Positions 1,410-49,615 of a stretch of DNA of 55,111 nt are shown here, piece after piece. The notes under the pieces are model-generated. The model saw only the letters and a program-made list of their open reading frames with translations. It was not told the DNA's origin and did not search any database. Positions within the stretch are counted from its first letter, which is position 1; every line of letters begins with the position of its first letter. Made by a program: the position numbers and the translations under genes. Source of the DNA: a virus; the IMG/VR virus record IMGVR_UViG_3300043777_000051, positions 1 through 55,111 of that record; one strand, given 5' to 3'.

Positions 1410-1696
1410 CCGGAAAGAAGTTCGGCAAATTAATAGCCATTTGCTTCCAAGGCAGCAACGGCAGGCATTGTTATTGGCTTTGTCGTTGCGACTGCGGTAA
1501 AAAGGTCGCCCCACATATTGAGGATGAAGGCTTGTCGGATGCTGCCGAATTGCTGATTGCCAGCGGCATCCTCACGGCTCTTGCAGGTATTTTCTTTGCC
1601 TGCATTGCGGTCGCTGGCCTCATTGATGGCTTCGCTGCCACAAAAACCGCAGAGTACGATTCCTACCAAGACCTGATCTACGATTGGAAAGATTAA
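1391..1696 (+). CDS. Fusion of an AP2/HNH-type Zn domain fragment with a membrane segment
   Basis: 101 residues. Residues 1-38 (DLTGKKFGKL... WLCRCDCG) match the N-terminal domain commonly found in phage homing-endonuclease and AP2-type DNA-binding proteins. After that the sequence changes character. Residues about 52-82 form a hydrophobic stretch (ASGILTALAGIFFACIAVAG) and the tail is acidic. The catalytic or DNA-binding part expected after CDCG is missing. It is probably a recombination product in which the end of a nuclease gene was replaced by a small membrane protein. Confidence 0.55.
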   Translation: MPKNDLTGKKFGKLIAICFQGSNGRHCYWLCRCDCGKKVAPHIEDEGLSDAAELLIASGILTALAGIFFACIAVAGLIDGFAATKTAEYDSYQDLIYDWKD

Positions 1697-39414: not shown

Positions 39415-39784
39415 CTGTCAAAACGTCGCTGGCCTTAATCCCAGAACCGGAATCCACTCCGTCGATGTTGACAATCCCCGGAGCTACTGCTGTGCAGAGT
39501 CCGGACGCAGGATCGACAGTCGCAATGGCCGTGTTCTCGCTCGAATAACTGACTGTCCCCGTAGGCGGGACGACCTGCCCCGTACCGTTCGGGCCGCTAA
39601 ATTCCTGATAAACCGCCTGTGCGCCCTTGCCTCCTACCGCGATGGTTGCTGGCATTTCGCCTCCTTCAAAGGTTAATGTTGCAGATCTTGGTTTCCTGGG
39701 TTTGAGTTCGTCGCGTATTTCCCGCAACAATTCCTTGATACTCCGAAGTTGGCAGAGAAAGCAATCACAATCTCGCGGATGCAT
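39356..39784 (-). CDS. Ig-like (BIG2) domain protein, first gene of the late operon
   Basis: 142 residues. Cys-rich, basic start (CDCFLCQLRSIKELLREIRD), then a BIG2-type fold with the signature GTVSYSSENTAIATVDPASG and GLCTAVAPGIVNI. Such domains decorate phage capsids or tails and bind host surfaces weakly. Being first in the late operon and far from the tail genes suggests a capsid decoration protein. Confidence 0.65.
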   Translation of the reverse strand: MHPRDCDCFLCQLRSIKELLREIRDELKPRKPRSATLTFEGGEMPATIAVGGKGAQAVYQEFSGPNGTGQVVPPTGTVSYSSENTAIATVDPASGLCTAVAPGIVNIDGVDSGSGIKASDVLTVTAAVNPPAVSATLTLTAL

Positions 39785-39791
39785 CGTAATC

Positions 39792-39814
39792 GATGACTAT
39801 GCACTTGACACAGA
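39792..39814 (+). repeat. Dispersed 23-bp repeat, copy 1
   Basis: Matches the minus strand at 45821-45843 with one mismatch in 23. It begins GATGACTATGCA and contains TTGACA. Here TTGACA serves as the -35 of the promoter at 39805-39833. Both copies encode a short MTMHLTQ reading frame. Confidence 0.75.
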
Positions 39815-39833
39815 AATGAATTAAGCGTATATT
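39805..39833 (+). promoter_or_regulatory. Strong sigma70-type promoter for the island
   Basis: TTGACA (39805-39810), exactly 17 bases, TATATT (39828-39833). It points into a 26-codon ORF and the transposase gene. Confidence 0.7.
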
Positions 39834-39839
39834 TTCTTC

Positions 39840-39920
39840 ATGCACCCGCTAGTTGAAATCGTGCTGGTTCTGGTGGTACTCGCCGGAACAGCATTTCTAA
39901 CATGGATGAAGATCAGATGA
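39840..39920 (+). CDS. 26-aa hydrophobic leader-type peptide
   Basis: ATG 39840 lies seven bases after the -10, and the peptide (MHPLVEIVLVLVVLAGTAFL, then TWMKIR) is a single transmembrane helix. It overlaps the transposase start in another frame, so its translation may couple to or limit transposase synthesis. Could be a small toxin-like membrane peptide. Confidence 0.4.
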   Translation: MHPLVEIVLVLVVLAGTAFLTWMKIR

Positions 39921-40879
39921 AACTGATAGAAGTCACAAAGGCTTTCGCAACCGAAGAACAATGCTTGGCCTACCTAGAAGCGAAACGCTGGCCCACTGGC
40001 GTGCGCTGCCTCACTTGCGGTTCTAAGGACATCTCCCGCATTATGCGCAAGGTCACCAAGAAAACGGACAACAAGCGCGCTCAGCTTTATCAGTGCTTAG
40101 AGCCGAGCTGCAAGGCTCAGTTCTCCGCGACTACGGGGACGATCTTCAACGGCTCTCACCTGTCCCTCGACAAATGGTACATGGCGGTTGCGCTCATGGT
40201 GGACGCGAAAAAGGGCATGTCAGCTTTGCAGCTTCAACGGCATTTGAAAGTTAACTACCGCACAGCCTGGTATCTCTGTCACCGCATCCGCGAAGCTATG
40301 GACGATCCTGAGGGGCTAAAGCTGACAGGAACAGTAGAGATCGACGAAACGTACATCGGCGGAAAGCAGAAGGGTCACAAGCGGAAAAGACTCAACAAGG
40401 ACGTGGTGCTCGGAATCCGACAGCGCGGCGGCCCTCTTCGGCTCGTACACGTTCGGGACAACAAGGCCGGGACGCTCTACGAAGCAATCGCGCAGCACGT
40501 TGACAAGGGTGTTGAAAAGATCATGACGGACGATGCTGGAGCCTACAATTTCCGCATCACCAAATTCCGCGATGCCAAGCACTCCCGAATCCGTCACAGC
40601 CGGGGTGAGTACGTCAAAGGCGAAGTCCACACAAACACCGTGGAAAATTCGTTCTCGCTCCTGAAACGGGCTGTGATAGGGACGTATCACCAGCTTTCGA
40701 TAAAGCACCTGCAACGCTACCTGAATGAGTTTTCTTACAGGTTCAATCGGCGGGAAGAAGCGGAACTGTTCGAGCAGACCGTGAGCCGGATGGCGGGAGT
40801 CAAGCCGATGCCCTACGCCAAGCTGATCGAACAGAACGCTTTTACGCCGTTCGTTCGTCCCGAAATGGGAACACACTAA
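39902..40879 (+). CDS. ISXO2/IS1595-type transposase
   Basis: 325 residues. N-terminal zinc ribbon (CLTCGSKDI ... CLEPSC, residues 36-70), helix-rich DNA-binding part, then the catalytic core: VEIDETYIGG (Asp148), IMTDDAGAYN (Asp210) and EVHTNTVENSFSLLKR (about 241-256), the D-D-N/E pattern of ISXO2-like enzymes. Complete by length. No clear terminal inverted repeats or target duplication were found, so an entire IS is not proven. Driven by the promoter at 39805. Confidence 0.85.
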   Translation: MDEDQMKLIEVTKAFATEEQCLAYLEAKRWPTGVRCLTCGSKDISRIMRKVTKKTDNKRAQLYQCLEPSCKAQFSATTGTIFNGSHLSLDKWYMAVALMVDAKKGMSALQLQRHLKVNYRTAWYLCHRIREAMDDPEGLKLTGTVEIDETYIGGKQKGHKRKRLNKDVVLGIRQRGGPLRLVHVRDNKAGTLYEAIAQHVDKGVEKIMTDDAGAYNFRITKFRDAKHSRIRHSRGEYVKGEVHTNTVENSFSLLKRAVIGTYHQLSIKHLQRYLNEFSYRFNRREEAELFEQTVSRMAGVKPMPYAKLIEQNAFTPFVRPEMGTH

Positions 40880-40989
40880 GGTAATTGCATTAGGTAATAG
40901 CCATTGATTACAAAGGAGTTACGGGACATTAAAATTACAATATTTTCCTTGCTTCTTTCTCCCCTCTAGTGCATCATACATAGCGATAG

Positions 40990-41060
40990 AACCTCCACGC
41001 CTAGCCTCAGTAGTGTGTTTTCACACTCATTGAGTGATGCGCATAGTTGGAGGTTTTTTT
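40990..41060 (+). ncRNA. abiF-like small RNA / hairpin upstream of the Abi_2 gene
   Basis: AACCTCCA (40990-40997) pairs with TGGAGGTT (41048-41055), followed by a T-run (41054-41060). Inside lies a second hairpin, GTGTG/CACAC with a TTTT loop (41013-41026). The hairpin ends 12 bases before the Abi_2 start codon. Placement and shape fit the abiF RNA described by comparative genomics next to abiF genes. It could terminate transcription, encode an RNA antitoxin, or both. Confidence 0.6.
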
Positions 41061-41071
41061 ATTGCCGTAAA

Positions 41072-41974
41072 ATGAAGTTTCCGAAAGTTGCAAAAACGTA
41101 CGATGAGCAACTCGCGCTCTTAAAGGAGCGCGGCCTCTCCATTTCGAGCGATGAAGTGGCGCTGCGATGGCTTAGGCGCGTGAGTTATTATCGGCTTAGC
41201 GCTTACTTTCCCACATTCAGAAAATCCCCAGCCAGCGAAGAGTTTCTTCCCCGAGCCAGCTTCGATGCCATAATTGACCTGTACGTGTTCGACTGCCGAT
41301 TGCGGAATATCTTTATGATCGCAATCGAACGCATTGAGATTTCTCTCCGAACGGTCATCACCTACGAATTGTCACACGCACACGGACCTTTCGCCCACAC
41401 ATTACCAGCGGCATATTCGTCATGGTTCATGAAGATAGTTAGGCTCGGAGAACCGCCGCCGTTTGATGAGTTCATAAGCAATATCGAGAAAGAGGAAAAG
41501 CGGGGCAAGGAACTCTTCATCAAGACTTACCGAGAAAAGTACACCCTAGAAAAACATTTGCCAATTTGGATGGCTACGGAACTCATGTCGTTCGGTACGT
41601 TGTCGATGATGTTCGAGGGCCTCAAGAGCGCAACGAAAACCAAAATCGCGGCGGAGTACAAATTGGCAGAAAAGCCGTTTCAGAACTGGCTGCACGTCCT
41701 TTCCAGCATCCGCAATCTTATTGCCCATCACAGTCGGCTGTGGAATCGCCAGCTTGGAGTACAGGCAATGATTCCCCACGGATGGGTTTATGAAGTTCCC
41801 AGGACAGATCGAATTTACTGTGTGGCGGTTATGACCCAGCATTTGCTACAGGTAATCGCTACCGGCGGCAATTGGAAAAAGCGCTTGTTTGTGCTTTTCG
41901 ACCATCACCCCCACGTTCCGCTAGATCCCATGGGATTCCCTCATGATTGGCGAGAATTAGAGCCGTGGAAATAG
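41072..41974 (+). CDS. Abi_2 (AbiD/AbiF-like) abortive-infection protein
   Basis: 300 residues from ATG 41072; the open frame upstream is inside the RNA hairpin. Starts KFPKVAKTYDEQLALLKERG, with LRRVSYYRLSAYFPTFRK as the Abi_2 signature. RNLIAHHSRLWNR (about 218-230) has the Rx4H pattern of HEPN ribonucleases. Known members abort infection by competing phages. Carried by a phage it may exclude superinfecting phages, with the upstream RNA as probable controller. Full length for the family. Confidence 0.8.
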   Translation: MKFPKVAKTYDEQLALLKERGLSISSDEVALRWLRRVSYYRLSAYFPTFRKSPASEEFLPRASFDAIIDLYVFDCRLRNIFMIAIERIEISLRTVITYELSHAHGPFAHTLPAAYSSWFMKIVRLGEPPPFDEFISNIEKEEKRGKELFIKTYREKYTLEKHLPIWMATELMSFGTLSMMFEGLKSATKTKIAAEYKLAEKPFQNWLHVLSSIRNLIAHHSRLWNRQLGVQAMIPHGWVYEVPRTDRIYCVAVMTQHLLQVIATGGNWKKRLFVLFDHHPHVPLDPMGFPHDWRELEPWK

Positions 41975-42059
41975 TTCGGCTGAGAGGCGCTAAATAACTG
42001 AGAGGCAATGGTTTATGGTTCCTTGCATCCTAGCCGCCGTGCACAGAATCAAAATAGTG

Positions 42060-42640
42060 ACTTTACAGCGACCACTGTATCGGCGCAGAACCTAGACTAA
42101 AGTACTCTACCCGGAGAGCAGGGAGGACTGTGTATAATGGAAGTTGACACCCTCCCAGCCAGGCAGTAGACTGCTTGCCCTAAGGGGCTCTAGGCTCGAA
42201 GGAGGAGTCCATTCAAAATGAAGATTCGGAGTGAGAACGATTTCGGATAAACCATTCACTGGTATAAATATAGCTGCCTGACCTAGGTCAGGGTTTCGGC
42301 GGTTCTTTTCAAAAGGGGATTTTTGGCAGTTACCGCGTTTCGCCTACCACAAGTCGGTAACTCGCGCAAGCGATATTATGGCGAAAACTGTGTATTTTAG
42401 TGGATTCCCTGTGTAGAACATGTGGAAAGCCGCTAGTGGCTTGTGGTACATTCTTGCTTGTACGCAGTGTAAGCATATTTGCTTACCGTAGGAGCCTTCG
42501 GAACTCTGGCCCGAAAGGTTAACGGCGCGGCGAAATCTCAGGCGTGGTGTGGTGCAAAGGTACGGTCACACGACCGACAATAGAGAACTCACTTGTGAGG
42601 CGAGGGCACTGTGAGTAAACGGAATCCCCCAAAATTCATT
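42060..42640 (+). ncRNA. Candidate large structured non-coding RNA
   Basis: No credible ORF occupies 41975-42906. On the plus strand many stable hairpins follow one another: GGGAGG/CCTCCC plus GTGT/ACAC (42121-42156), GCAGT/ACTGC (42163-42174), the 16-base palindrome CCTGACCTAGGTCAGG (42277-42292), AGTTACCG/CGGTAACT (42328-42362), TCGC-GCAA-GCGA (42362-42373, GNRA loop), AAGCC/GGCTT (42427-42442), GTAAGC/GCTTAC (42469-42486), a UUCG loop near 42497, CGGTC/GACCG (42563-42576) and CTCAC/GTGAG (42588-42599). Tetraloop orientation favours the plus strand. Size, phage location and nearby tRNA features recall GOLLD/ROOL-type giant RNAs, but no family match is claimed. Confidence 0.5.
42277..42292. 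repeat. 16-bp perfect palindrome
   Basis: CCTGACCTAGGTCAGG is its own reverse complement. It could be a dimeric-protein operator or a helix of the candidate RNA. Confidence 0.75.
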
Positions 42641-42648
42641 CATTAAAG

Positions 42649-42677
42649 ATTGGCTGCAAAGTTGCAACGCAGCCAAT
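42649..42677. other. Strong 9-bp hairpin between the RNA tract and the tRNA-like element
   Basis: ATTGGCTGC (42649-42657) and GCAGCCAAT (42669-42677) with an 11-base loop. On the minus strand the stem is followed by CTTTAATG, so it might end a minus-strand transcript of the tRNA-like element, though the T-run is weak. Confidence 0.5.
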
Positions 42678-42678
42678 G

Positions 42679-42751
42679 AGACCGAGGCCGGAGTCGAACC
42701 GGATGGGTGTCCCTTGCAAAGAGCACTCCGTTCCGCACGGGGACCTCGGTC
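42679..42751 (-). ncRNA. tRNA-like element (degenerate tRNA-Ala(UGC)-like)
   Basis: 73 bases on the minus strand with a 7-bp acceptor GACCGAG/CTCGGTC, GG at positions 18-19, loop TTTGCAA (UGC anticodon) and T-arm CCGG-TTCGACT-CCGG at exact tRNA spacing. The D and anticodon stems are poor (3 bp each), and no CCA is encoded. An alternative fold pairs GTCCC with GGGAC as in tmRNA-like domains. A decayed tRNA or a tRNA mimic. Confidence 0.4.
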
Positions 42752-42756
42752 GTGAA

Positions 42757-42854
42757 GGCGGGACTAAACGTTGGAGCGCAGACATCTTGGTGGGGCGAGT
42801 GGGTGTTGATTCCCCAACAAGTAGAACGTGCCCTTGAGACCGTTTAGTCCCGCC
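42757..42854. ncRNA. Structured element closed by a 14-bp perfect stem
   Basis: GGCGGGACTAAACG (42757-42770) pairs perfectly with CGTTTAGTCCCGCC (42841-42854). Inside, TTGGTGGGG (42787-42795) pairs with CCCCAACAA (42812-42820) with one mismatch. It abuts the tRNA-like element. Strand of transcription unclear. Confidence 0.5.
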
Positions 42855-42906
42855 GATCATTGTACATTGGAGTCAATAGTTTGCCCTGTGGAAATCGACG
42901 GCATAT

Positions 42907-43086
42907 ATGGGAGAACAAAAGGTAAACCCACAATTTGACCGTTTCAAAGATGCCATGAAGAAGCTCATGGCTGTTCCCCATTCCGAGATCAAGGCGCACC
43001 TGGATGCCGAGAAAGCCGCAAAGCGCCTCAAGCGGACGCGGAAGTCTAAGTACGCTGCCTTCCGCGCCGTGAATAGAAACGGTTAG
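42907..43086 (+). CDS. Small basic protein convergent with a transposase (F..L..P family)
   Basis: 59 residues (MGEQKVNPQFDRFKDAMKKL, then MAVPHSEI..., basic tail). Same pattern as the peptides at 44254 and 48861: Phe, amphipathic helix, Leu-x-x-x-Pro, then Lys/Arg. Its 3' end overlaps the transposase stop by four bases on the other strand, a layout repeated at 48861/49010. Probably a conserved partner of these transposases, function unknown. Confidence 0.6.
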   Translation: MGEQKVNPQFDRFKDAMKKLMAVPHSEIKAHLDAEKAAKRLKRTRKSKYAAFRAVNRNG

Positions 43087-44084
43087 AGGGGACGCTCCAT
43101 AGTCTTGCCAGTCAGTTCCGCATAGGTCAGCCGCTTTCCTACAATCTGCCTTAGAGCTATCTTGAACCTATCGGAATCATTCAGTGGATTATCTTTCGTT
43201 GCGCGATTGTTGTAACGGAAAGCCTGTTCGTCCACGTATCTTTCCAAGTGAAAAGGCTCAACGCAAACGTAGGTTCCTTTCAGGGAACGCTTCATCAAAC
43301 TCCAAAAGTTTTCGAGACCGTTCGTATGCACACGGCCACGGACGTATTCTTCTGCATGGTTCACAACTTCATGCACGAAGTTGCAACGCAGATCGTCATA
43401 AGGAACCGCGTCATCGGTGTAAACCTTGGTGCCGTACTTCACATTCTTTAGAACTTCGGATTGCAACGTTTCACGCTTCACGTCCGGCACAACCTTTGCC
43501 CGAACTTCGCGCAGGTTGCGGTCAAGAATGCCTTGCACAATCGTCTTGCCAGTCGAACCGCCAGTGTGCCCACTCTCAGCGGCGAATCGTGTACGGCGCG
43601 AACGGTGCATATTCTTTAGTTTGCCGCCGACAAAACTCTCATCGACTTCGACTTCACTGCCGCCGCCGCCCAGCTTGGAGAATCCAAAGCCGCGACGCAG
43701 GGCCACGCGAATGCGATGAAGCATGAACCATGCACTTTTCTGAGTCACGCCCAGAGCGCGATGCAGTTCCCAGCTAGAGATGCCGTTCTTATCGTTGACC
43801 AGCATCCACACGGCGGGAAGCCACTTCTCTAAGGCAATAGGTGAGTCCTCAAATACGGTGCCGACCTTCAGGGAGAACTTGGTCTTAGGATGCTTCGCAT
43901 AGCACTTGTAGACACGCGCCTTGGCAAGGTAGGTGACCTTCTCGGACTGGCACTTCGGGCAGCGTACCTGCCCGTCATCCCAGCGGATAGAGATCATAAA
44001 CTGGCGACAGTTCTCAAAGTCTGCAAAATATTTTATTGCTTCCTGTAACGTCCGTGGCGTTTCCATGCAGTAAATATGCCACAA
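43083..44084 (-). CDS. ISXO2/IS1595-type transposase
   Basis: 333 residues. Zn ribbon (CPKCQSEKVTYLAKARVYKC), then EVEVDESFVGGKLK, KVYTDDAVPYDD and RVHTNGLENFWSLMKRSLKG, the three catalytic blocks of ISXO2-type enzymes. Complete. Only distantly similar to the copy at 39902 but close to the fragment at 49010. No TIR pair was found in the flanks examined. Confidence 0.85.
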   Translation of the reverse strand: MWHIYCMETPRTLQEAIKYFADFENCRQFMISIRWDDGQVRCPKCQSEKVTYLAKARVYKCYAKHPKTKFSLKVGTVFEDSPIALEKWLPAVWMLVNDKNGISSWELHRALGVTQKSAWFMLHRIRVALRRGFGFSKLGGGGSEVEVDESFVGGKLKNMHRSRRTRFAAESGHTGGSTGKTIVQGILDRNLREVRAKVVPDVKRETLQSEVLKNVKYGTKVYTDDAVPYDDLRCNFVHEVVNHAEEYVRGRVHTNGLENFWSLMKRSLKGTYVCVEPFHLERYVDEQAFRYNNRATKDNPLNDSDRFKIALRQIVGKRLTYAELTGKTMERPL

Positions 44085-44253
44085 ACAGAACGGTCAGTCA
44101 AGTATATTCTTGCCAAGAATGTGGCTCCCTTGCCATCGACTTTTTCTGCGCCAGGAGGCACCGAGTTGGCCCTTTAACAACGCACGCAAATGTAGCTAGC
44201 AACAGCCGAAATGTCAACTTACCCTCTAAATGGAGTTAGATGCTGGCAGGGTC

Positions 44254-44382
44254 TTACCGTTTGATAGGTTCAGACTGAATTAATTTCTGCAAAACCTTGT
44301 CGAAAACCTGTTTCTCTACTCGAATCCGCTTGGGGAGCGGCTTTGCTGATGTGCGTTTTTTCGGACCTTTTTGACTACTCAT
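44254..44382 (-). CDS. Small basic protein (F..L..P family)
   Basis: 42 residues: MSSQKGPKKRTSAKPLPKRI, then RVEKQVFDKVLQKLIQSEPIKR. Basic N-terminus and an amphipathic helix ending Ser-Glu-Pro. Similar in design to 42907-43086 and 48861-49013. It is the only candidate gene between the transposase and the tRNA. Confidence 0.55.
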   Translation of the reverse strand: MSSQKGPKKRTSAKPLPKRIRVEKQVFDKVLQKLIQSEPIKR

Positions 44383-44518
44383 TTTGCATTCCACTTATGT
44401 TTTGCGCAACTATCCACAGATAAGTCGCCACATCCACAGCTTCTTCACAGGTCAAATCCCGAAATCGCAGCATTTTCGCTTTTCTTTTGAATTTATTGCC
44501 CTAGCATTTCAGGTGGCG

Positions 44519-44606
44519 GGAGGCTGACTGGTCGGTTTACCAGGAGCGGACTTATAATCCGCAGTTCCCCGCGAGGAACGGTGTTCGACTCACCCAGCCT
44601 CCGCCA
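44519..44606 (+). tRNA. Class II tRNA, anticodon UAU, CCA encoded
   Basis: 88 bases. Acceptor GGAGGCT/AGCCTCC (7 bp), discriminator G, CCA encoded (44604-44606). D-arm CTGG/CCAG, anticodon arm GCGGA-CTTATAA-TCCGC with TAT at 44553-44555, long variable arm GTTCC/GGAAC, T-arm GGTG-TTCGACT-CACC. The long variable arm and G73 look like tRNA-Ser, while UAU would read the isoleucine codon AUA. Charging identity is therefore unclear. Confidence 0.85.
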
Positions 44607-44980
44607 TCCTTCGCAGTCCGTTATACCACCAAACACATCCTGTGGCACAAGCGGTTTCTGCGTCCCGCGAGGGAATCTGTACTATAATCTCCAAACCTTT
44701 CCCCAAGGGCCTCCCCGGAGTTCCGTTTTCGTAACACACTCTCATTCCTGTGCGGTATCCTCCGCCGATGTGAGAAGGTGTGCTTACCGGAAATCGGGAT
44801 TCCGGGGTCTTAAACCGCACACAGCAAGTCGAGACCCCGATAGGGGGTTCCCGCTTCCGGTGAGCGCTTCTTCGCTTGCAATCATCAGCATTAGGTCCCA
44901 GAACCAGAGCCGAAAGACTTCTTGCCGTCCTCAGCATCATGGGTTAGCGTAGTTGCCGATCAGTACGCAACACACACTCG

Positions 44981-45018
44981 CCCCCGACTCCAAACTGCCA
45001 GAAGCGAGTCGGGGGTTT
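44981..45018 (+). terminator. Terminator-like hairpin
   Basis: CCCCCGACTC (44981-44990) pairs with GAGTCGGGGG (45006-45015); TTTCTCC follows. Ten perfect pairs, short T-run. Confidence 0.55.
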
Positions 45019-45033
45019 CTCCTCGCTCCTTAC

Positions 45034-45081
45034 GCCCTGACTTCACAACCACCGGGGGGAGGCCAGAAGTCAGGGCCTTTT
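45034..45081 (+). terminator. Terminator-like hairpin
   Basis: GCCCTGACTTC (45034-45044) pairs with GAAGTCAGGGC (45066-45076), followed by CTTTT. Eleven perfect pairs. A second stop in tandem with the one at 44981. Confidence 0.6.
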
Positions 45082-45162
45082 CTCAGGCGAAAGTTCTGCA
45101 TTAACACCGCTGCTTGTCTACCTCTGTGGTATAACGTTGGCCTTCCCCTAGAAAGCAAGTTG

Positions 45163-45777
45163 CTAGTCCTTCAACTTTCCACCTTGGAGGAGTATCTGTC
45201 CGCCTTCCTTGCTTACATCTGATAGTCGCCTGATACTTGTTCCATCCCGATCTTTCGGTAGCAACAATACACTGACTCCTGTTTGCGCCCCTATCTTGGC
45301 AACTGATCTGATCGTGGCGTTGGGGTCGTAGGCAATCACGATAGACACTAAGCCCCCGGTGATCTGGAAAGGTTTACTCACAGCAATTTTGTCATCCGCC
45401 ATTTCGTCAACGGTAGGATCAAACACATGGCAGGTAATAAACATGTTGTATTTATCGGCCACCTTCACGAACGATGATGTATCTATCGCAGCGCTACAGC
45501 CCTCCGTCGTTCCGCCCCACGCAGCAATAAACACGGGAAGTGGTGAGGGCCTGACGGCTGCAATTATGAAAGGCAACCAGCACACAAGGATCAGCCCAAC
45601 CATTAAAAACACTGGCGTATAGAGTCTCCTGACCAACGCCCTTTCCGCCGCTACGCGCTTTGGTGAGCGCGGCGACGGTATCTCTTCTATCTTTTGTTTC
45701 ATAAGCCTGATTTGGTAAGCCTGAAACCCGACTCCAATCACAGTCACGACGAGCGGCAGCCAAAACTTGTAATCCAC
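45163..45777 (-). CDS. Membrane protein with C-terminal alpha/beta domain
   Basis: 204 residues; GTG start after GCAGGAGGTCATC. Two membrane helices (FWLPLVVTVIGVGFQAYQI and TPVFLMVGLILVCWLPFIIA) are separated by a basic linker. A soluble domain of about 110 residues follows (YNMFITCHVFDPTVDEMADD ... PFQITGGLVSIVIAYDP). The style is that of bacterial chromosomal membrane proteins, suggesting acquisition from the host. Function unknown. Confidence 0.65.
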   Translation of the reverse strand: MDYKFWLPLVVTVIGVGFQAYQIRLMKQKIEEIPSPRSPKRVAAERALVRRLYTPVFLMVGLILVCWLPFIIAAVRPSPLPVFIAAWGGTTEGCSAAIDTSSFVKVADKYNMFITCHVFDPTVDEMADDKIAVSKPFQITGGLVSIVIAYDPNATIRSVAKIGAQTGVSVLLLPKDRDGTSIRRLSDVSKEGGQILLQGGKLKD

Positions 45778-45820
45778 GATGACCTCCTGCTGGTGACGAC
45801 AAAGAGCATTTTACGCCCCC

Positions 45821-45843
45821 TCTGTGTCAAATGCATAGTCATC
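45821..45843 (-). repeat. Dispersed 23-bp repeat, copy 2
   Basis: On the minus strand equals 39792-39814 except for one base. It lies between the RHH gene's stop and the start of the membrane protein gene. Confidence 0.75.
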
Positions 45844-45853
45844 TCGTAATCTC

Positions 45854-47009: not shown

Positions 47010-47122
47010 CGTACCCTCTCAAAGTGGGCGAGGCAACTATATTCTTGCCCAAATAAATCATCAGGATCGAAGTCACTGAGCTTCGGTATGTGGTTCGGGT
47101 ATTGTGCTGGTTCGAGAATCAT
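47006..47122 (-). CDS. 38-aa acidic peptide in an overlapping gene chain
   Basis: MILEPAQYPNHIPKLSDFDP is its first half. Linked by ATGA overlaps on both sides (47119/47122 and 47006/47009). The chain arrangement is the main evidence that it is translated. Confidence 0.5.
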   Translation of the reverse strand: MILEPAQYPNHIPKLSDFDPDDLFGQEYSCLAHFERVR

Positions 47123-47211
47123 TGGCCACGCCCTCGGAAGGCAATCAAATAAGCGACTATGCCAATCGCGGCAGATACAAATACGGCTACGACAAAATCC
47201 TCTATACTCAT
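47119..47211 (-). CDS. 30-aa single-pass membrane peptide
   Basis: MSIEDFVVAVFVSAAIGIVA continues YLIAFRGRGQ: one membrane helix with a positive C-terminus. Start overlaps the upstream stop as ATGA, stop overlaps the next start likewise. Confidence 0.5.
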   Translation of the reverse strand: MSIEDFVVAVFVSAAIGIVAYLIAFRGRGQ

Positions 47212-47372
47212 TGGCTTGCCTCTTGCGTAGATGAGAGAGACCGCCGCTTAAACGTTGCTAGTTTTCTGCATTTGCGGTTTGGGCAGCGTTTAGGCTTCTC
47301 GCTCGATGCGGCAAGCCAAGTCCAGGAGCATTCTAGGCATTGCCAACACATTGCTTTTACTGCCTTTATCAT
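47208..47372 (-). CDS. Zinc-ribbon small protein, first of the leftward chain
   Basis: 54 residues from ATG 47372 with CWQCLEC and CPNRKC. TACAAT on the minus strand ends only about six bases before this ATG, so initiation may be leaderless; an upstream ATG at 47420 is the alternative. Putative operator repeats overlap this region. Confidence 0.5.
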   Translation of the reverse strand: MIKAVKAMCWQCLECSWTWLAASSEKPKRCPNRKCRKLATFKRRSLSSTQEASQ

Positions 47373-47475
47373 GCGTGAATTGTACCATCCAAAGTTATTC
47401 ACAGTGGCGCAATGTGCCATAACTCGCTGATTGCAAACCAAATCGAGTTCTTGACAAGTTGGCGCATTGTACCAT
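47373..47475. promoter_or_regulatory. Three related operator-like repeats between divergent genes
   Basis: TGGCGCAATGTGCCAT (47405-47420) and TGGCGCATTGTACCAT (47460-47475) agree at 14 of 16 bases. GCGTGAATTGTACCAT (47373-47388) agrees with the latter at 12. Each has TGG..CCA-type symmetry. They lie between the leftward chain and the rightward promoter, the third inside its spacer. Confidence 0.5.
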
Positions 47476-47480
47476 ATACT
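47451..47480 (+). promoter_or_regulatory. Promoter with consensus -35
   Basis: TTGACA (47451-47456), 18 bases, TATACT (47475-47480). An operator-like repeat fills the spacer, so repression by a dimeric protein is likely. Confidence 0.6.
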
Positions 47481-47524
47481 CCTTCTTGTTGGATTGGTTC
47501 ACTCTACTCTGGGAGGCGCGGAAA

Positions 47525-47981
47525 ATGAAAGATACATTCTGGATGACGGCGCAAGAAACGGAAGATGAACTCAAGAGCCGACAATTAGCGGACATTATGA
47601 TTAATTGCCGCAATGAAGGATCGTTCTTTGGTCATGCCGTGCCTTACTCTTACAGGCCGGAGCTTCGCAAAGGCACTAACCTAGTTGACGCACATGTAGA
47701 AAAACCTGCACAATCGCCGTCGTGCGGTGGCAATCCCGAAAGTACTTCAGCATCTTCGTTCGGCTTACATATTTGCAGTCGCATTCGCGGTTGGTTGGCC
47801 CGGCAATTCAATCGAACCCGTCACACAATTGCGTCATATCGTGGACGCAAATATCGTTGTGAGCGGGATTCTAGCGTTTGCTCTGGCAGTGTGGACAACA
47901 TTCTGGGCGGCATTTTGGGTGTGGGTATTCCGAGAGCGGAACCCCCCAAAGAAAAAGCCTCGCGCTGGCCAGCGGCGATAG
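47525..47981 (+). CDS. Promoter-proximal ORF, probably soluble N-terminus joined to membrane part by a frame change
   Basis: ATG 47525 with GGGAGG nine bases upstream and a strong promoter. The first 60 codons (MKDTFWMTAQETEDELKSRQ...) look real. The frame then runs open to 48763, antisense to a better gene, while a second frame (47727-47981) takes over with clear membrane helices. A single frameshifted gene of about 150 codons explains both, but two overlapping genes are possible. Confidence 0.4.
47727..47981 (+). CDS. Two-helix membrane protein or C-terminal part of the preceding ORF
   Basis: 84 residues from GTG 47727. SAYIFAVAFAVGWPG and ANIVVSGILAFALAVWTTFW are membrane segments; the tail RNPPKKKPRAGQRR is strongly positive. 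Ends three bases before the stop of the convergent gene at 47984. Confidence 0.5.
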   Translation: MAIPKVLQHLRSAYIFAVAFAVGWPGNSIEPVTQLRHIVDANIVVSGILAFALAVWTTFWAAFWVWVFRERNPPKKKPRAGQRR

Positions 47982-47983
47982 GG

Positions 47984-48859
47984 CTATTTCTCTGCCTTGC
48001 AGTCGTCGTCGGTGCAATTGTGATGATCGGGACAAAGGGTCGTGCGACTAATCCAAGTTTTACTGGTGAAGTTTCTAAGGACTGGGTGGACTTCATAACA
48101 GAATTTAGTGATGTGGAGGTCAGTCCCCTCAAATACATCATTGTAGGTGGCCCAGCCGTAGAGGTAGGTGTGTTCGCCAGGTTTCGCCATGTCCTGAACG
48201 CTAATAGGGTCAGTCCAATAAAAAATGTGGTCTTGGGGAGCAACCATGCTCTTTTCGCCGCTTTCCAAGTCGTGAAAATCAAAATTGTCGGGAATTGTGC
48301 CGGGCAACGATTTAATGAAAATATGATCTTGCAATCGGCGAGTCGTTGTTGCGCCGCTATTTCGGATCGCTACTTGGAATCTCCAAGCTGTGATGTCTGG
48401 AGAGTCTTCCGTGTCGGTAATCCACAGATTTGTGATGTCTGGAGAAAAACTAACGAAGGCTCTTTGAACCTTCTCCAAACTGTCGCGACTAATTCTATTT
48501 TGTTTGATCATTTGGCAAAGCTGAGCCGCATATATCAGAGCGACACTAGCGCCTACAGCAATAGCCGCGATCTCAAGAAGGAACTTCCTATCCTTCTTCC
48601 ATGGTTTTTCGCGCTCTTGGGTTTCTGCTTTTACAGCTATAGTCTCTGGCAGGTTAAGCCGAGCGCGAATCACGGGGCCTTGTGGTTCTTTTGCTTCTTT
48701 CTCGGGCTTGCTATTTTTATGTACGGTGTCTATGGAATACTCCGGTCGTTCGGAGGATTCTAGTTTGGGTTTTTCAGTAAAGAGTCTATTCTTGATTTGA
48801 GCGATGTCTTCGCGCAGCTTTTGGAATAGATCAGTCACATACTCGTAAGGTTTGCTCAT
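47984..48859 (-). CDS. Bacterial-type membrane protein
   Basis: 291 residues. Charged cytoplasmic N-terminus with coil (YVTDLFQKLREDIAQIKNRL), one membrane helix at about 95-117 (LLEIAAIAVGASVALIYAAQ), then a beta-rich outer domain with RAFVSFSPDI, NSGATTTRRLQDH and a Cys/His tail (CPDHHNCTDDDC). I know this pattern from bacterial chromosomal proteins of unknown function. Start codon is one base away from the divergent start at 48861. Confidence 0.6.
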   Translation of the reverse strand: MSKPYEYVTDLFQKLREDIAQIKNRLFTEKPKLESSERPEYSIDTVHKNSKPEKEAKEPQGPVIRARLNLPETIAVKAETQEREKPWKKDRKFLLEIAAIAVGASVALIYAAQLCQMIKQNRISRDSLEKVQRAFVSFSPDITNLWITDTEDSPDITAWRFQVAIRNSGATTTRRLQDHIFIKSLPGTIPDNFDFHDLESGEKSMVAPQDHIFYWTDPISVQDMAKPGEHTYLYGWATYNDVFEGTDLHITKFCYEVHPVLRNFTSKTWISRTTLCPDHHNCTDDDCKAEK

Positions 48860-48860
48860 A

Positions 48861-49013
48861 ATGAAAACGCCCGAATACAGGGAAGGCCCGGAAGCACTAG
48901 AGAGTTTTAAGAGGCTTGCGACCGCGATTTTACAGGCTCCCGCGAAAAAGAAAAAGAGGCAAACTAAGAAGTCTGCCTCTGTAGCGAAGCCGAAGAAATC
49001 CGACAGGGACTAG
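48861..49013 (+). CDS. Small basic protein convergent with a truncated transposase (F..L..P family)
   Basis: 50 residues: REGPEALESFKRLATAILQA then a Lys-rich tail. Overlaps the stop of the transposase fragment by four bases, exactly as at 42907/43083. Confidence 0.6.
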   Translation: MKTPEYREGPEALESFKRLATAILQAPAKKKKRQTKKSASVAKPKKSDRD

Positions 49014-49399
49014 AACGGGATTGGCGTTTCTCCCGCTTCCCGCGCCCCTGTCGCCTCGTGGTGTGGCGATGCGCTCTTGCCCGTGAGATCGCTGTAGGTA
49101 AGGCGACGATTGTAGACTTCGGACATCACGGCCTTAAAGCGGTCGGCATCGTTTAGCTTGCGGTTGCCATCCTTGCGATGGTTGTAACGGAAAACTTGTT
49201 CGTCCACGTAGCGTGCGAGATGAAAAGGCTCAACAGCAACGTAGGTGCCACGCAGAGACCGCTTGAGCAACGACCAGAAATTCTCCATCCCGTTAACATG
49301 CACGCGACCCCGGACGTAAGTCTCAGTCTTGTTTACAACGTCGTGAATGAATCGGCGCTGCATTCCGTTGTCATAGCCAACCGCGTTATCCGTGTACAC
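49010..49399 (-). pseudogene. Truncated ISXO2-type transposase (C-terminal third)
   Basis: 129 residues matching the end of the 333-aa transposase at 43083: VYTDNAVGYDN versus VYTDDAVPYDD, and RVHVNGMENFWSLLKRSLRG versus RVHTNGLENFWSLMKRSLKG. The Zn ribbon and the first catalytic Asp are missing. The junction is near 49400, where an unrelated plus-strand gene begins. Not expected to be active alone. Confidence 0.8.
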
Positions 49400-49405
49400 G
49401 TTTGC

Positions 49406-49615
49406 ATGTTGAACCTACCAGAGATCGACGTTATGCAGCGATTGCTGGAATGTGCGCGGGAAGATCATCAGTCACATCATGGCAGCGTATTTGTCTATGA
49501 CACTGACAAGGCTTGCTGCAAGCGCGGACAGGCCATCATCGATGCCGAAGCGATACTGAACACTTCCCGAGATAACTACCTGCTTCCCGACAATCTTGTG
49601 GGCGGACCAGCGTGA
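49406..49615 (+). CDS. Hypothetical protein, possibly 5'-truncated
   Basis: 69 residues from ATG 49406 without a ribosome site, starting seven bases from the transposase break. Sequence LPEIDVMQRLLECAREDHQS then CCKRGQAIIDAEAIL. The gene may have lost its beginning to the transposon-associated deletion. Coupled to the next gene by GTGA. Confidence 0.45.
   Translation: MLNLPEIDVMQRLLECAREDHQSHHGSVFVYDTDKACCKRGQAIIDAEAILNTSRDNYLLPDNLVGGPA

What the first reader, a model, noticed from the sequence alone, without database searches (positions are those of the whole stretch)
42060..42860. About 800 bases of non-coding DNA packed with RNA-like structure: candidate giant phage ncRNA
No credible gene lies between 41975 and 42906, yet the plus strand shows at least ten successive hairpins of 4-9 bp with GNRA (TCGC-GCAA-GCGA at 42362) and UUCG loops, plus AGTTACCG/CGGTAACT and a 16-base palindrome. 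Phages are known to carry giant ornate RNAs (GOLLD, ROOL) near tRNA genes; this tract is the right size and sits close to a tRNA and a tRNA-like element. It may be one of these or a new class.
Basis: partly seen in the sequence, partly recalled or inferred. Interest (0 to 1): 0.75.

Follow-up and report, generated by a model that had tools for sequence, protein, structure and literature searches.

The report
Transposon-borne tRNA-like RNA in phage
The suspected giant RNA is really part of two nested jumping genes inside a phage of soil bacteria; only about 220 bases of it are a genuine, evolutionarily conserved structured RNA, shaped like an odd transfer RNA, and its role is still unknown.

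Summary
The tract is non-coding and the named hairpins exist, but it is not a giant RNA. From 42060 to 42640 plus-strand folding is near chance (z -1.75, p 0.05), and nothing there except a transposon end has a homologue. Structure concentrates in 42641-42858 (z -5.9 minus, -3.9 plus). No Rfam family matches. The tract spans two nested IS1595-family transposons: outer A (39792-45843, 8-bp target duplication) with tnpA, an Abi_2 gene and a UAU allo-tRNA; inner B (42261-44114) with tnpB, a small basic ORF and the RNA module. The module holds a minus-strand 8/4 tRNA-like RNA (42751-42680), a terminator-like hairpin and a long-stemmed element. Copies in Acidobacteriota genomes covary: 9 of 21 tRNA-like pairs change on both sides (0/500 shuffles); the neighbouring three-way junction keeps 39/39 pairs with 5 compensatory changes, on the plus strand. 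The tRNA-like RNA resembles the known allo-tRNA/irregular-tRNA group of Acidobacteria, but an 8-base anticodon loop, a mismatched anticodon stem and no encoded CCA argue against ordinary decoding. Identity is well supported; function (antisense or regulatory RNA of the small ORF) is inferred, about 0.3.

The parts
39784..45851 (.). Outer IS1595-family transposon A (39792-45843) with its 8-bp target duplication TCGTAATC (39784-39791 and 45844-45851)
   Evidence: TIR GATGACTATGCACTTGACACAG, 21 of 22 positions identical between the ends, and exact 8-bp repeats outside both; same TIRs with 8-bp repeats in L061 and L062
39902..40879 (+). tnpA, IS1595-type DDE transposase
   Evidence: PF12762 E 1.9e-35, PF12760; 92% identical relative in an Acidobacteriaceae MAG
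40988..41062 (+). Strong hairpin with terminator-like T-run directly upstream of the Abi_2 gene; candidate AbiF-type RNA (context, not part of the reported tract)
   Evidence: z -5.5, none of 500 shuffles; similar layout upstream of the nearest Terriglobia Abi homologue L183; no RF03085 match
41072..41974 (+). Abi_2 (AbiD/AbiF family) gene
   Evidence: PF07751 E 1e-54
42261..44114 (.). Inner IS1595-family transposon B (degenerate TIRs 42261-42283 and 44092-44114; no target duplication found in this copy)
   Evidence: 28 of 60 positions match between the inverted ends, best of 25 registers; same ends with 8-bp duplication TACCAAAA in L096 10775-12494
42650..42676 (-). Terminator-like hairpin TTGGCTGC/GCAGCCAA at the 3' side of the tRNA-like RNA (read on minus, followed by TCTTT)
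   Evidence: Present in L097 and L096 with a T-A to C-G compensatory change; longest T-run in L096
42680..42751 (-). 8/4 tRNA-like RNA: 8-bp acceptor, 3-bp D arm, 6-bp anticodon arm with an 8-nt loop UUUGCAAG, 4-nt variable region, 4-bp T arm
   Evidence: 79% DNA identity to G263; G221 member by covariance model, E 7e-9 per genome; 9 of 21 pairs with changes on both sides, 0/500 shuffles; one of only two such branches in the window, none in shuffled control
42757..42854 (+). Long-stemmed element (14-bp outer stem 42757-42770 with 42841-42854), counterpart of the three-way-junction RNA of G263 and G015; interior diverged
   Evidence: z -4.0 plus; 39/39 pairs and 5 compensatory changes in the two host copies, on plus; the window copy itself is not scored by R1
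42907..43086 (+). orf59, small basic protein of transposon B, downstream of the RNA module on plus
   Evidence: 71% identical homologue in L096; homologues in 11 of 30 tnpB loci
43083..44084 (-). tnpB, IS1595-type DDE transposase
   Evidence: PF12762 E 4e-38; 79% identical in G015
44254..44394 (-). orf46, small basic ORF beside the UAU allo-tRNA in transposon A
   Evidence: Homologues at the same place in L063/L099, L098 and L082
44518..44606 (+). Allo-tRNA UAU of transposon A (8/4 branch, long variable arm, GCCA end)
   Evidence: ARAGORN tRNA-Ile(tat); tRNA-Sec model 38.9 bits, E 6e-6, below its gathering score; same RNA inside TIR-bounded elements L061 and L062
45163..45777 (-). Passenger ORF of transposon A, no Pfam match

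Best explanation
SHOWN: the tract lies in two nested IS1595-family transposons in a phage accessory region. Most of it (41975-42640) is the tail of the Abi cargo, a transposon end and unconserved spacer. Its last 220 nt or so (42641-42858) are a structured RNA module carried as a passenger by the inner transposon B: an 8/4 tRNA-like RNA with a terminator-like hairpin, read from the minus strand (the tnpB strand), and beside it a long-stemmed element which in two host copies is a three-way-junction RNA of the plus strand, upstream of a small basic ORF. INFERRED: the tRNA-like RNA is made as a short minus-strand transcript, antisense to the leader of the small ORF. Pairing between the two, or binding of the tRNA-like RNA by the small protein or by host tRNA-binding proteins, controls that ORF and so the keeping or the quietness of the element, much as in RNA-controlled toxin-antitoxin or transposition switches. 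I give the identity about 0.8 and this particular mechanism about 0.3.
For: Transposon ends and 8-bp duplications; the same order hairpin, tRNA-like, stem element, orf59, tnpB in a host element with TSD (L096); covariation of the tRNA-like RNA in three genomes; covariation and plus-strand wobble pattern of the junction; folding above chance only in 42641-42858; conserved small ORF beside tnpB; parallel layout tnpA, small opposite ORF, allo-tRNA in transposon A; literature suspicion that allo-tRNA-UAU belongs to mobile elements or toxin-antitoxin systems (PMC7609411).
Against: No transcript data. Only three members of the tRNA-like family and two of the junction are known; the window copy of the junction has a diverged interior and is not scored by R1. 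The G263 and G221 copies show no IS1595 ends or transposase nearby, so the module is not bound to transposons, and only a few tnpB elements carry it. Wobble evidence for the strand of the tRNA-like part is mixed. Inner transposon B of the window has no target duplication.
Confidence: 0.75

Rival explanations
1. Plus-strand only: the whole module (hairpin, complement of the tRNA-like fold, three-way junction) is one structured 5' leader of the small basic ORF, acting as a cis-regulatory element; the tRNA-like RNA is not made as such.
For: The junction is clearly a plus-strand RNA and lies just upstream of orf59; one T-stem change in G263 is a wobble only on plus; in G263 a loop of the junction (UCGCAAU) is complementary to the plus-strand copy of the anticodon loop (read).
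Against: The T-loop, 8/4 branch and D arm are those of a tRNA on minus; R2 scores minus far above plus (132 against 19 bits in the window, though the model was built on minus); G221 has the tRNA-like RNA without the junction and followed by a second tRNA-like sequence; folding of the tRNA-like part is slightly better on minus in all three copies.
Confidence: 0.2
2. Decayed tRNA relic: a tRNA-Ala-like gene picked up by a transposon, now drifting without function.
For: Mismatched anticodon stem, no encoded CCA, short D stem; the G015 copy is close to a 7/5 tRNA with a G3-U70-type pair and a poorly folding middle.
Against: Nine pairs changed on both sides among three distant copies, with the same odd features kept (8-nt loop with GCAA, mismatch at the fourth anticodon pair); drift would break the stems.
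Confidence: 0.15
3. Working decoding tRNA: an alanine- or missense-type allo-tRNA that reads YGC or, with its 8-nt loop, a four-base codon, helping translation of phage or transposon genes.
For: Invariant GCA in an 8-nt anticodon loop; ARAGORN reads the G263 and G221 copies as tRNA with cgca and tgca anticodons; some allo-tRNAs insert Ala or Ser in E. coli (PMC7609411).
Against: Fourth anticodon pair never forms; no CCA encoded; ARAGORN calls no tRNA for the window copy; related irregular tRNAs could not be charged by E. coli enzymes (PMC7609411).
Confidence: 0.1
4. Giant ornate phage RNA (GOLLD, ROOL, OLE or a new class) across 42060-42860.
For: Non-coding, several hairpins with GNRA or UUCG loops, near a tRNA.
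Against: No Rfam match even at E = 10; 42060-42640 z -1.75 and no homologues; a transposon end lies in the middle (42261); the conserved tRNA-like part is on the other strand.
Confidence: 0.03

Closest known systems
Allo-tRNAs and irregular tRNA polycistrons of Acidobacteria (Mukai et al. 2017, as reviewed in PMC7609411)
   Same: 8/4 acceptor/T branch, host group, unfit for ordinary decoding, occurrence in tandem (G221), suspected link to mobile elements
   Different: Short variable region, 8-nt anticodon loop, mismatched anticodon stem, terminator-like hairpin behind it; in two of the four copies flanked by a three-way-junction RNA, and inside an IS1595 element with mapped ends
IS1595-family insertion sequences and transposons with passenger genes (Siguier et al. 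2009, cited in PMC5704250)
   Same: DDE_Tnp_IS1595 transposase, inverted repeats of about 22-25 bp, 8-bp target duplications, passengers between transposase and one end
   Different: The passenger here is a structured RNA module with a small basic ORF, and one such element sits inside another within a phage
GOLLD / ROOL / OLE giant RNAs (Rfam)
   Same: Non-coding, structured, near a tRNA, on a phage
   Different: No model match, conserved part only about 220 nt, wrong strand, transposon-borne
AbiF / Abi_2 systems with small RNA (RF03085; RCd22 in PMC12373285)
   Same: Abi_2 protein with a structured, terminator-ended RNA directly upstream (40988-41062), on a phage
   Different: No RF03085 match; it is cargo of the outer transposon and lies outside the reported tract

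Membership tests
GOLLD / ROOL / OLE giant RNA | Match to the Rfam covariance model | tested here: not met
   no match up to E = 10
GOLLD / ROOL / OLE giant RNA | One folded RNA of several hundred nt, conserved over its length | tested here: not met
   Conservation and significant folding only in 42641-42858
Allo-tRNA (8/4 or 9/3 tRNA) | 12-bp acceptor/T branch in 8/4 or 9/3 form | tested here: met
   8-bp acceptor plus 4-bp T stem in the window, G263 (one T-stem mismatch) and G221
Allo-tRNA (8/4 or 9/3 tRNA) | Regular anticodon arm with a 7-nt loop | tested here: not met
   8-nt loop and a never-formed fourth pair in all three copies
Allo-tRNA (8/4 or 9/3 tRNA) | Long variable arm / serine identity | tested here: not met
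   4-nt variable region in this RNA; the UAU tRNA at 44518-44606 does have the long arm
Allo-tRNA (8/4 or 9/3 tRNA) | Aminoacylation or decoding in vivo | not testable with these tools
   Needs acid-urea gel or reporter
IS1595-family transposon | DDE_Tnp_IS1595 transposase | tested here: met
   both transposases
IS1595-family transposon | Inverted ends and 8-bp target duplication | tested here: met
   A: met in the window, L061 and L062; B: met in L096, L119 and L109, ends only in the window copy
AbiF-associated RNA (RF03085) | Match to the Rfam abiF model | tested here: not met
   position upstream of the Abi gene and terminator layout agree, the model does not match

The most novel reading that the evidence does not exclude
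A new kind of transposon-encoded RNA module: a tRNA-like RNA facing a three-way-junction leader of a small basic protein, carried as passenger by IS1595 transposons, with a parallel pair of allo-tRNA and small protein in a second IS1595 lineage. The irregular tRNAs of Acidobacteria would then be regulatory or addiction RNAs of mobile elements rather than translation tRNAs.
Probability: 0.3. Interest if true: 0.72.

Novelty: new variant of a known kind. Interest (0 to 1): 0.5.

Why it matters
Odd tRNAs that seem unfit for translation are abundant in soil Acidobacteria, and a link to transposons or toxin-antitoxin systems was only a guess (PMC7609411). Here such RNAs sit inside elements with exact ends and target duplications, beside small conserved basic ORFs. 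That gives a defined unit (transposase, small ORF, tRNA-like RNA) that can be cloned and tested, and shows one such unit carried into a phage beside an Abi defence gene.

Tried and rejected
Giant RNA families: Rfam at gathering and permissive thresholds, none. DNA homologues in phages and plasmids: none. Sibling phages found through the terminase: no such region, no tRNAs, no Rfam match. Relatives through the 59-aa ORF in viral contigs and through Abi in viral and genome contigs: none by pattern search. The 17-mer shared by 42792 and 44968 with one mismatch looked like a repeat, but the five viral-contig hits are what chance would give. Motif TCCCAGCGAAGGA of the junction element: 14 viral hits, all chance on inspection. 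AbiF RNA as an explanation of the tract: rejected, because known AbiF RNA lies upstream of the gene (PMC12373285) and a matching candidate lies upstream here too. R2 hits below 40 bits that were inspected are ordinary tRNA-Phe and tRNA-Gly genes. R1 over two samples of about 300 Terriglobia genomes found only G015 and G263. Rfam at E up to 0.5 on 16 tnpB loci found no further tRNA-like RNA.

Full report
OBSERVATION. Their density is not remarkable over most of it. Against dinucleotide shuffles, plus-strand folding gives z -0.3 (41975-42260), -1.5 (42261-42640) and -1.75 with p 0.05 (42060-42640), but z -3.9 on plus and -5.9 on minus for 42641-42858. A scan of the whole window in 160-nt steps agrees and shows other regions that are more structured. 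GNRA/UNCG hairpins number 4 against 1.2 expected (p 0.04); all hairpins of 6 bp or more are at chance on plus.

GIANT RNA TEST. Rfam 15 gives nothing in the window at gathering thresholds. On 41950-42920, with permissive filters and E up to 10, it gives only a sub-threshold tRNA-Sec match on the minus strand at 42751-42680 and a chance snoRNA match. There is no similar DNA in phage or plasmid records. Thirteen related phage contigs found through the terminase do not carry the region, and none of the sibling loci scanned has a tRNA.

WHERE IT SITS. The record is a 55-kb virus contig. The tract is flanked by two IS1595-family transposases, 39902-40879 (+) and 43083-44084 (-), and an Abi_2 gene. 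The nearest relatives of tnpA are in Acidobacteriaceae, Sulfotelmatobacter and other Terriglobia MAGs, which also suggests the host group. An outer transposon A is bounded exactly: TIR GATGACTATGCACTTGACACAG at 39792 and its inverse ending at 45843, with the 8-bp repeat TCGTAATC on both sides. The same TIRs with 8-bp repeats bound elements in L061 (AAGTTTCT) and L062 (AAGTTGTA). An inner transposon B has TIRs at 42261-42283 and 44092-44114. Its close relative in a host MAG (L096, 10775-12494) has the repeat TACCAAAA; the window copy shows no duplication.

THE CONSERVED RNA. A search of 399 Terriglobia genomes with the tract found one good match, G263:C19:24440-24563, 79% identical to window 42646-42768. 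It also found a 27-bp match in G015 that proved to be the left TIR of B. The G015 element (L096) has the same order: terminator-like hairpin, tRNA-like RNA, long-stemmed element, orf59, tnpB. Read on the minus strand, the tRNA-like RNA has an 8-bp acceptor, a 3-bp D arm (CCGUGCGGAACGG), a 6-bp anticodon arm with a mismatch at the fourth pair, an 8-nt loop, a 4-nt variable region and a 4-bp T arm with loop TTCGACT. A model of the window and G263 copies (R2) found a third member in G221 with 57.7 bits, E 7e-9 per genome; the weaker hits inspected are ordinary tRNA-Phe and tRNA-Gly genes. On the three sequences 93.7% of cells are paired and 9 of 21 pairs have changes on both sides. None of 500 shuffles reaches this, and slid registers fall to 28-48% paired. 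The fourth anticodon pair is a mismatch in all three (C-A, U-C, U-U), and GCAA in the loop is invariant. An independent script scan for such an acceptor/T branch over both strands of the whole window finds exactly two places, this one and the UAU tRNA at 44519-44602, and none in 327 kb of shuffled control.

THE STEM ELEMENT. Beside the tRNA-like RNA, G263 and G015 carry a 119-120 nt element that folds into a three-way junction far better on the plus strand (z -9.2 and -6.5) than on minus (-6.1 and -3.3). All 39 pairs form in both copies, five change on both sides, and each of the three one-sided changes gives G-U on plus, which would be C-A on minus. The window counterpart keeps the outer stem (14 bp, CGGGACT...AGTCCCG) but its interior has diverged and model R1 does not score it. 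R1 finds no further member in two samples of about 300 Terriglobia genomes. This element lies upstream of orf59 on the same strand. Homologues of orf59 occur in 11 of 30 tnpB loci, mostly on the opposite strand at the 3' end of tnpB, so the small ORF is a common part of this IS1595 group while the RNA module is an optional passenger. Other tnpB elements carry protein passengers in that slot. The G263 and G221 copies are not in recognisable IS1595 elements; in G221 a second irregular tRNA-like sequence follows directly (read).

PARALLEL IN TRANSPOSON A. The UAU tRNA at 44518-44606 is an 8/4 allo-tRNA with a long variable arm and a GCCA end. The same kind of RNA lies inside TIR-bounded A elements in L061 and L062, downstream of tnpA on the same strand, and in the partial elements L060, L063/L099, L098 and L082. 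In the window, L063, L098 and L082 a small basic ORF (orf46) lies beside it on the opposite strand. Allo-tRNA-UAU was known as an abundant soil group that was inactive in E. [quoted passage not shown]). The end and duplication evidence here turns that guess into a defined unit.

HOW IT MAY WORK. Shown: transposon context, conserved RNA folds, strand of the three-way junction, small conserved ORF. Inferred: the tRNA-like RNA is a short minus-strand transcript ending at the TTGGC hairpin (T-run clearest in G015), antisense to the leader of orf59. Control of that ORF, or binding of the tRNA-like RNA by the small protein or by host tRNA-binding proteins, is the likely role (about 0.3). Rivals are a plus-strand-only leader, a decayed tRNA, and a decoding tRNA with an 8-nt loop. 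Wobble evidence for the strand of the tRNA-like part is mixed; folding slightly favours minus in all three copies.

VERDICT. Not a giant phage RNA. It is a new variant of the irregular/allo-tRNA kind, carried by an IS1595 transposon nested in another.

Noticed in passing
window 40988-41062 (+), upstream of Abi_2: Strong hairpin with terminator-like T-run (z -5.5) just before the Abi_2 gene; the nearest Terriglobia Abi homologue (L183, about 44-45% identical) has a promoter-like sequence and a similar stem plus T-run there. Looks like an AbiF-type RNA that Rfam RF03085 does not recognise.
   Followed up: partly
window 44518-44606; L061 7565-7651; L062 8243-8324; also L060, L063, L098, L082: UAU allo-tRNA is found inside or next to tnpA-type IS1595 transposons with mapped ends and 8-bp target duplications, which supports the earlier guess that these odd tRNAs belong to mobile elements.
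   Followed up: yes
window 44600-45160: Second non-coding stretch in transposon A, with the strongest local folding of the plus strand in the window; long hairpins CCCCCGACTC/GAGTCGGGGG and GCCCTGACTTC/GAAGTCAGGGC, and inverted promoter-like GTTATACCAC/GTGGTATAAC copies that recur in L098 and L099.
   Followed up: partly
window 47027-49501: Remains of a third IS1595-type element: transposase fragment 49010-49501 (-) and a TIR-like sequence at 47049.
   Followed up: no
L119 (G151), element 124-2491: A tnpB element with target duplication CCCGCAAA carries two irregular tRNA-like sequences in tandem downstream of the transposase, one of them with 8- or 9-bp acceptor.
   Followed up: partly
L151 (G221) about 1444-1595 (-): Chromosomal copy of the tRNA-like RNA directly followed by what looks like a second irregular tRNA with GUA anticodon and long variable arm, both just downstream of a 276-aa gene without Pfam match.
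   Followed up: partly
L112 993-1087; L100 2715-3614: Sub-threshold DUF3800-IV RNA match near a tnpB gene, and a possible DUF3800-like passenger ORF in another tnpB element: other IS1595 passengers may also come with small RNAs.
   Followed up: no
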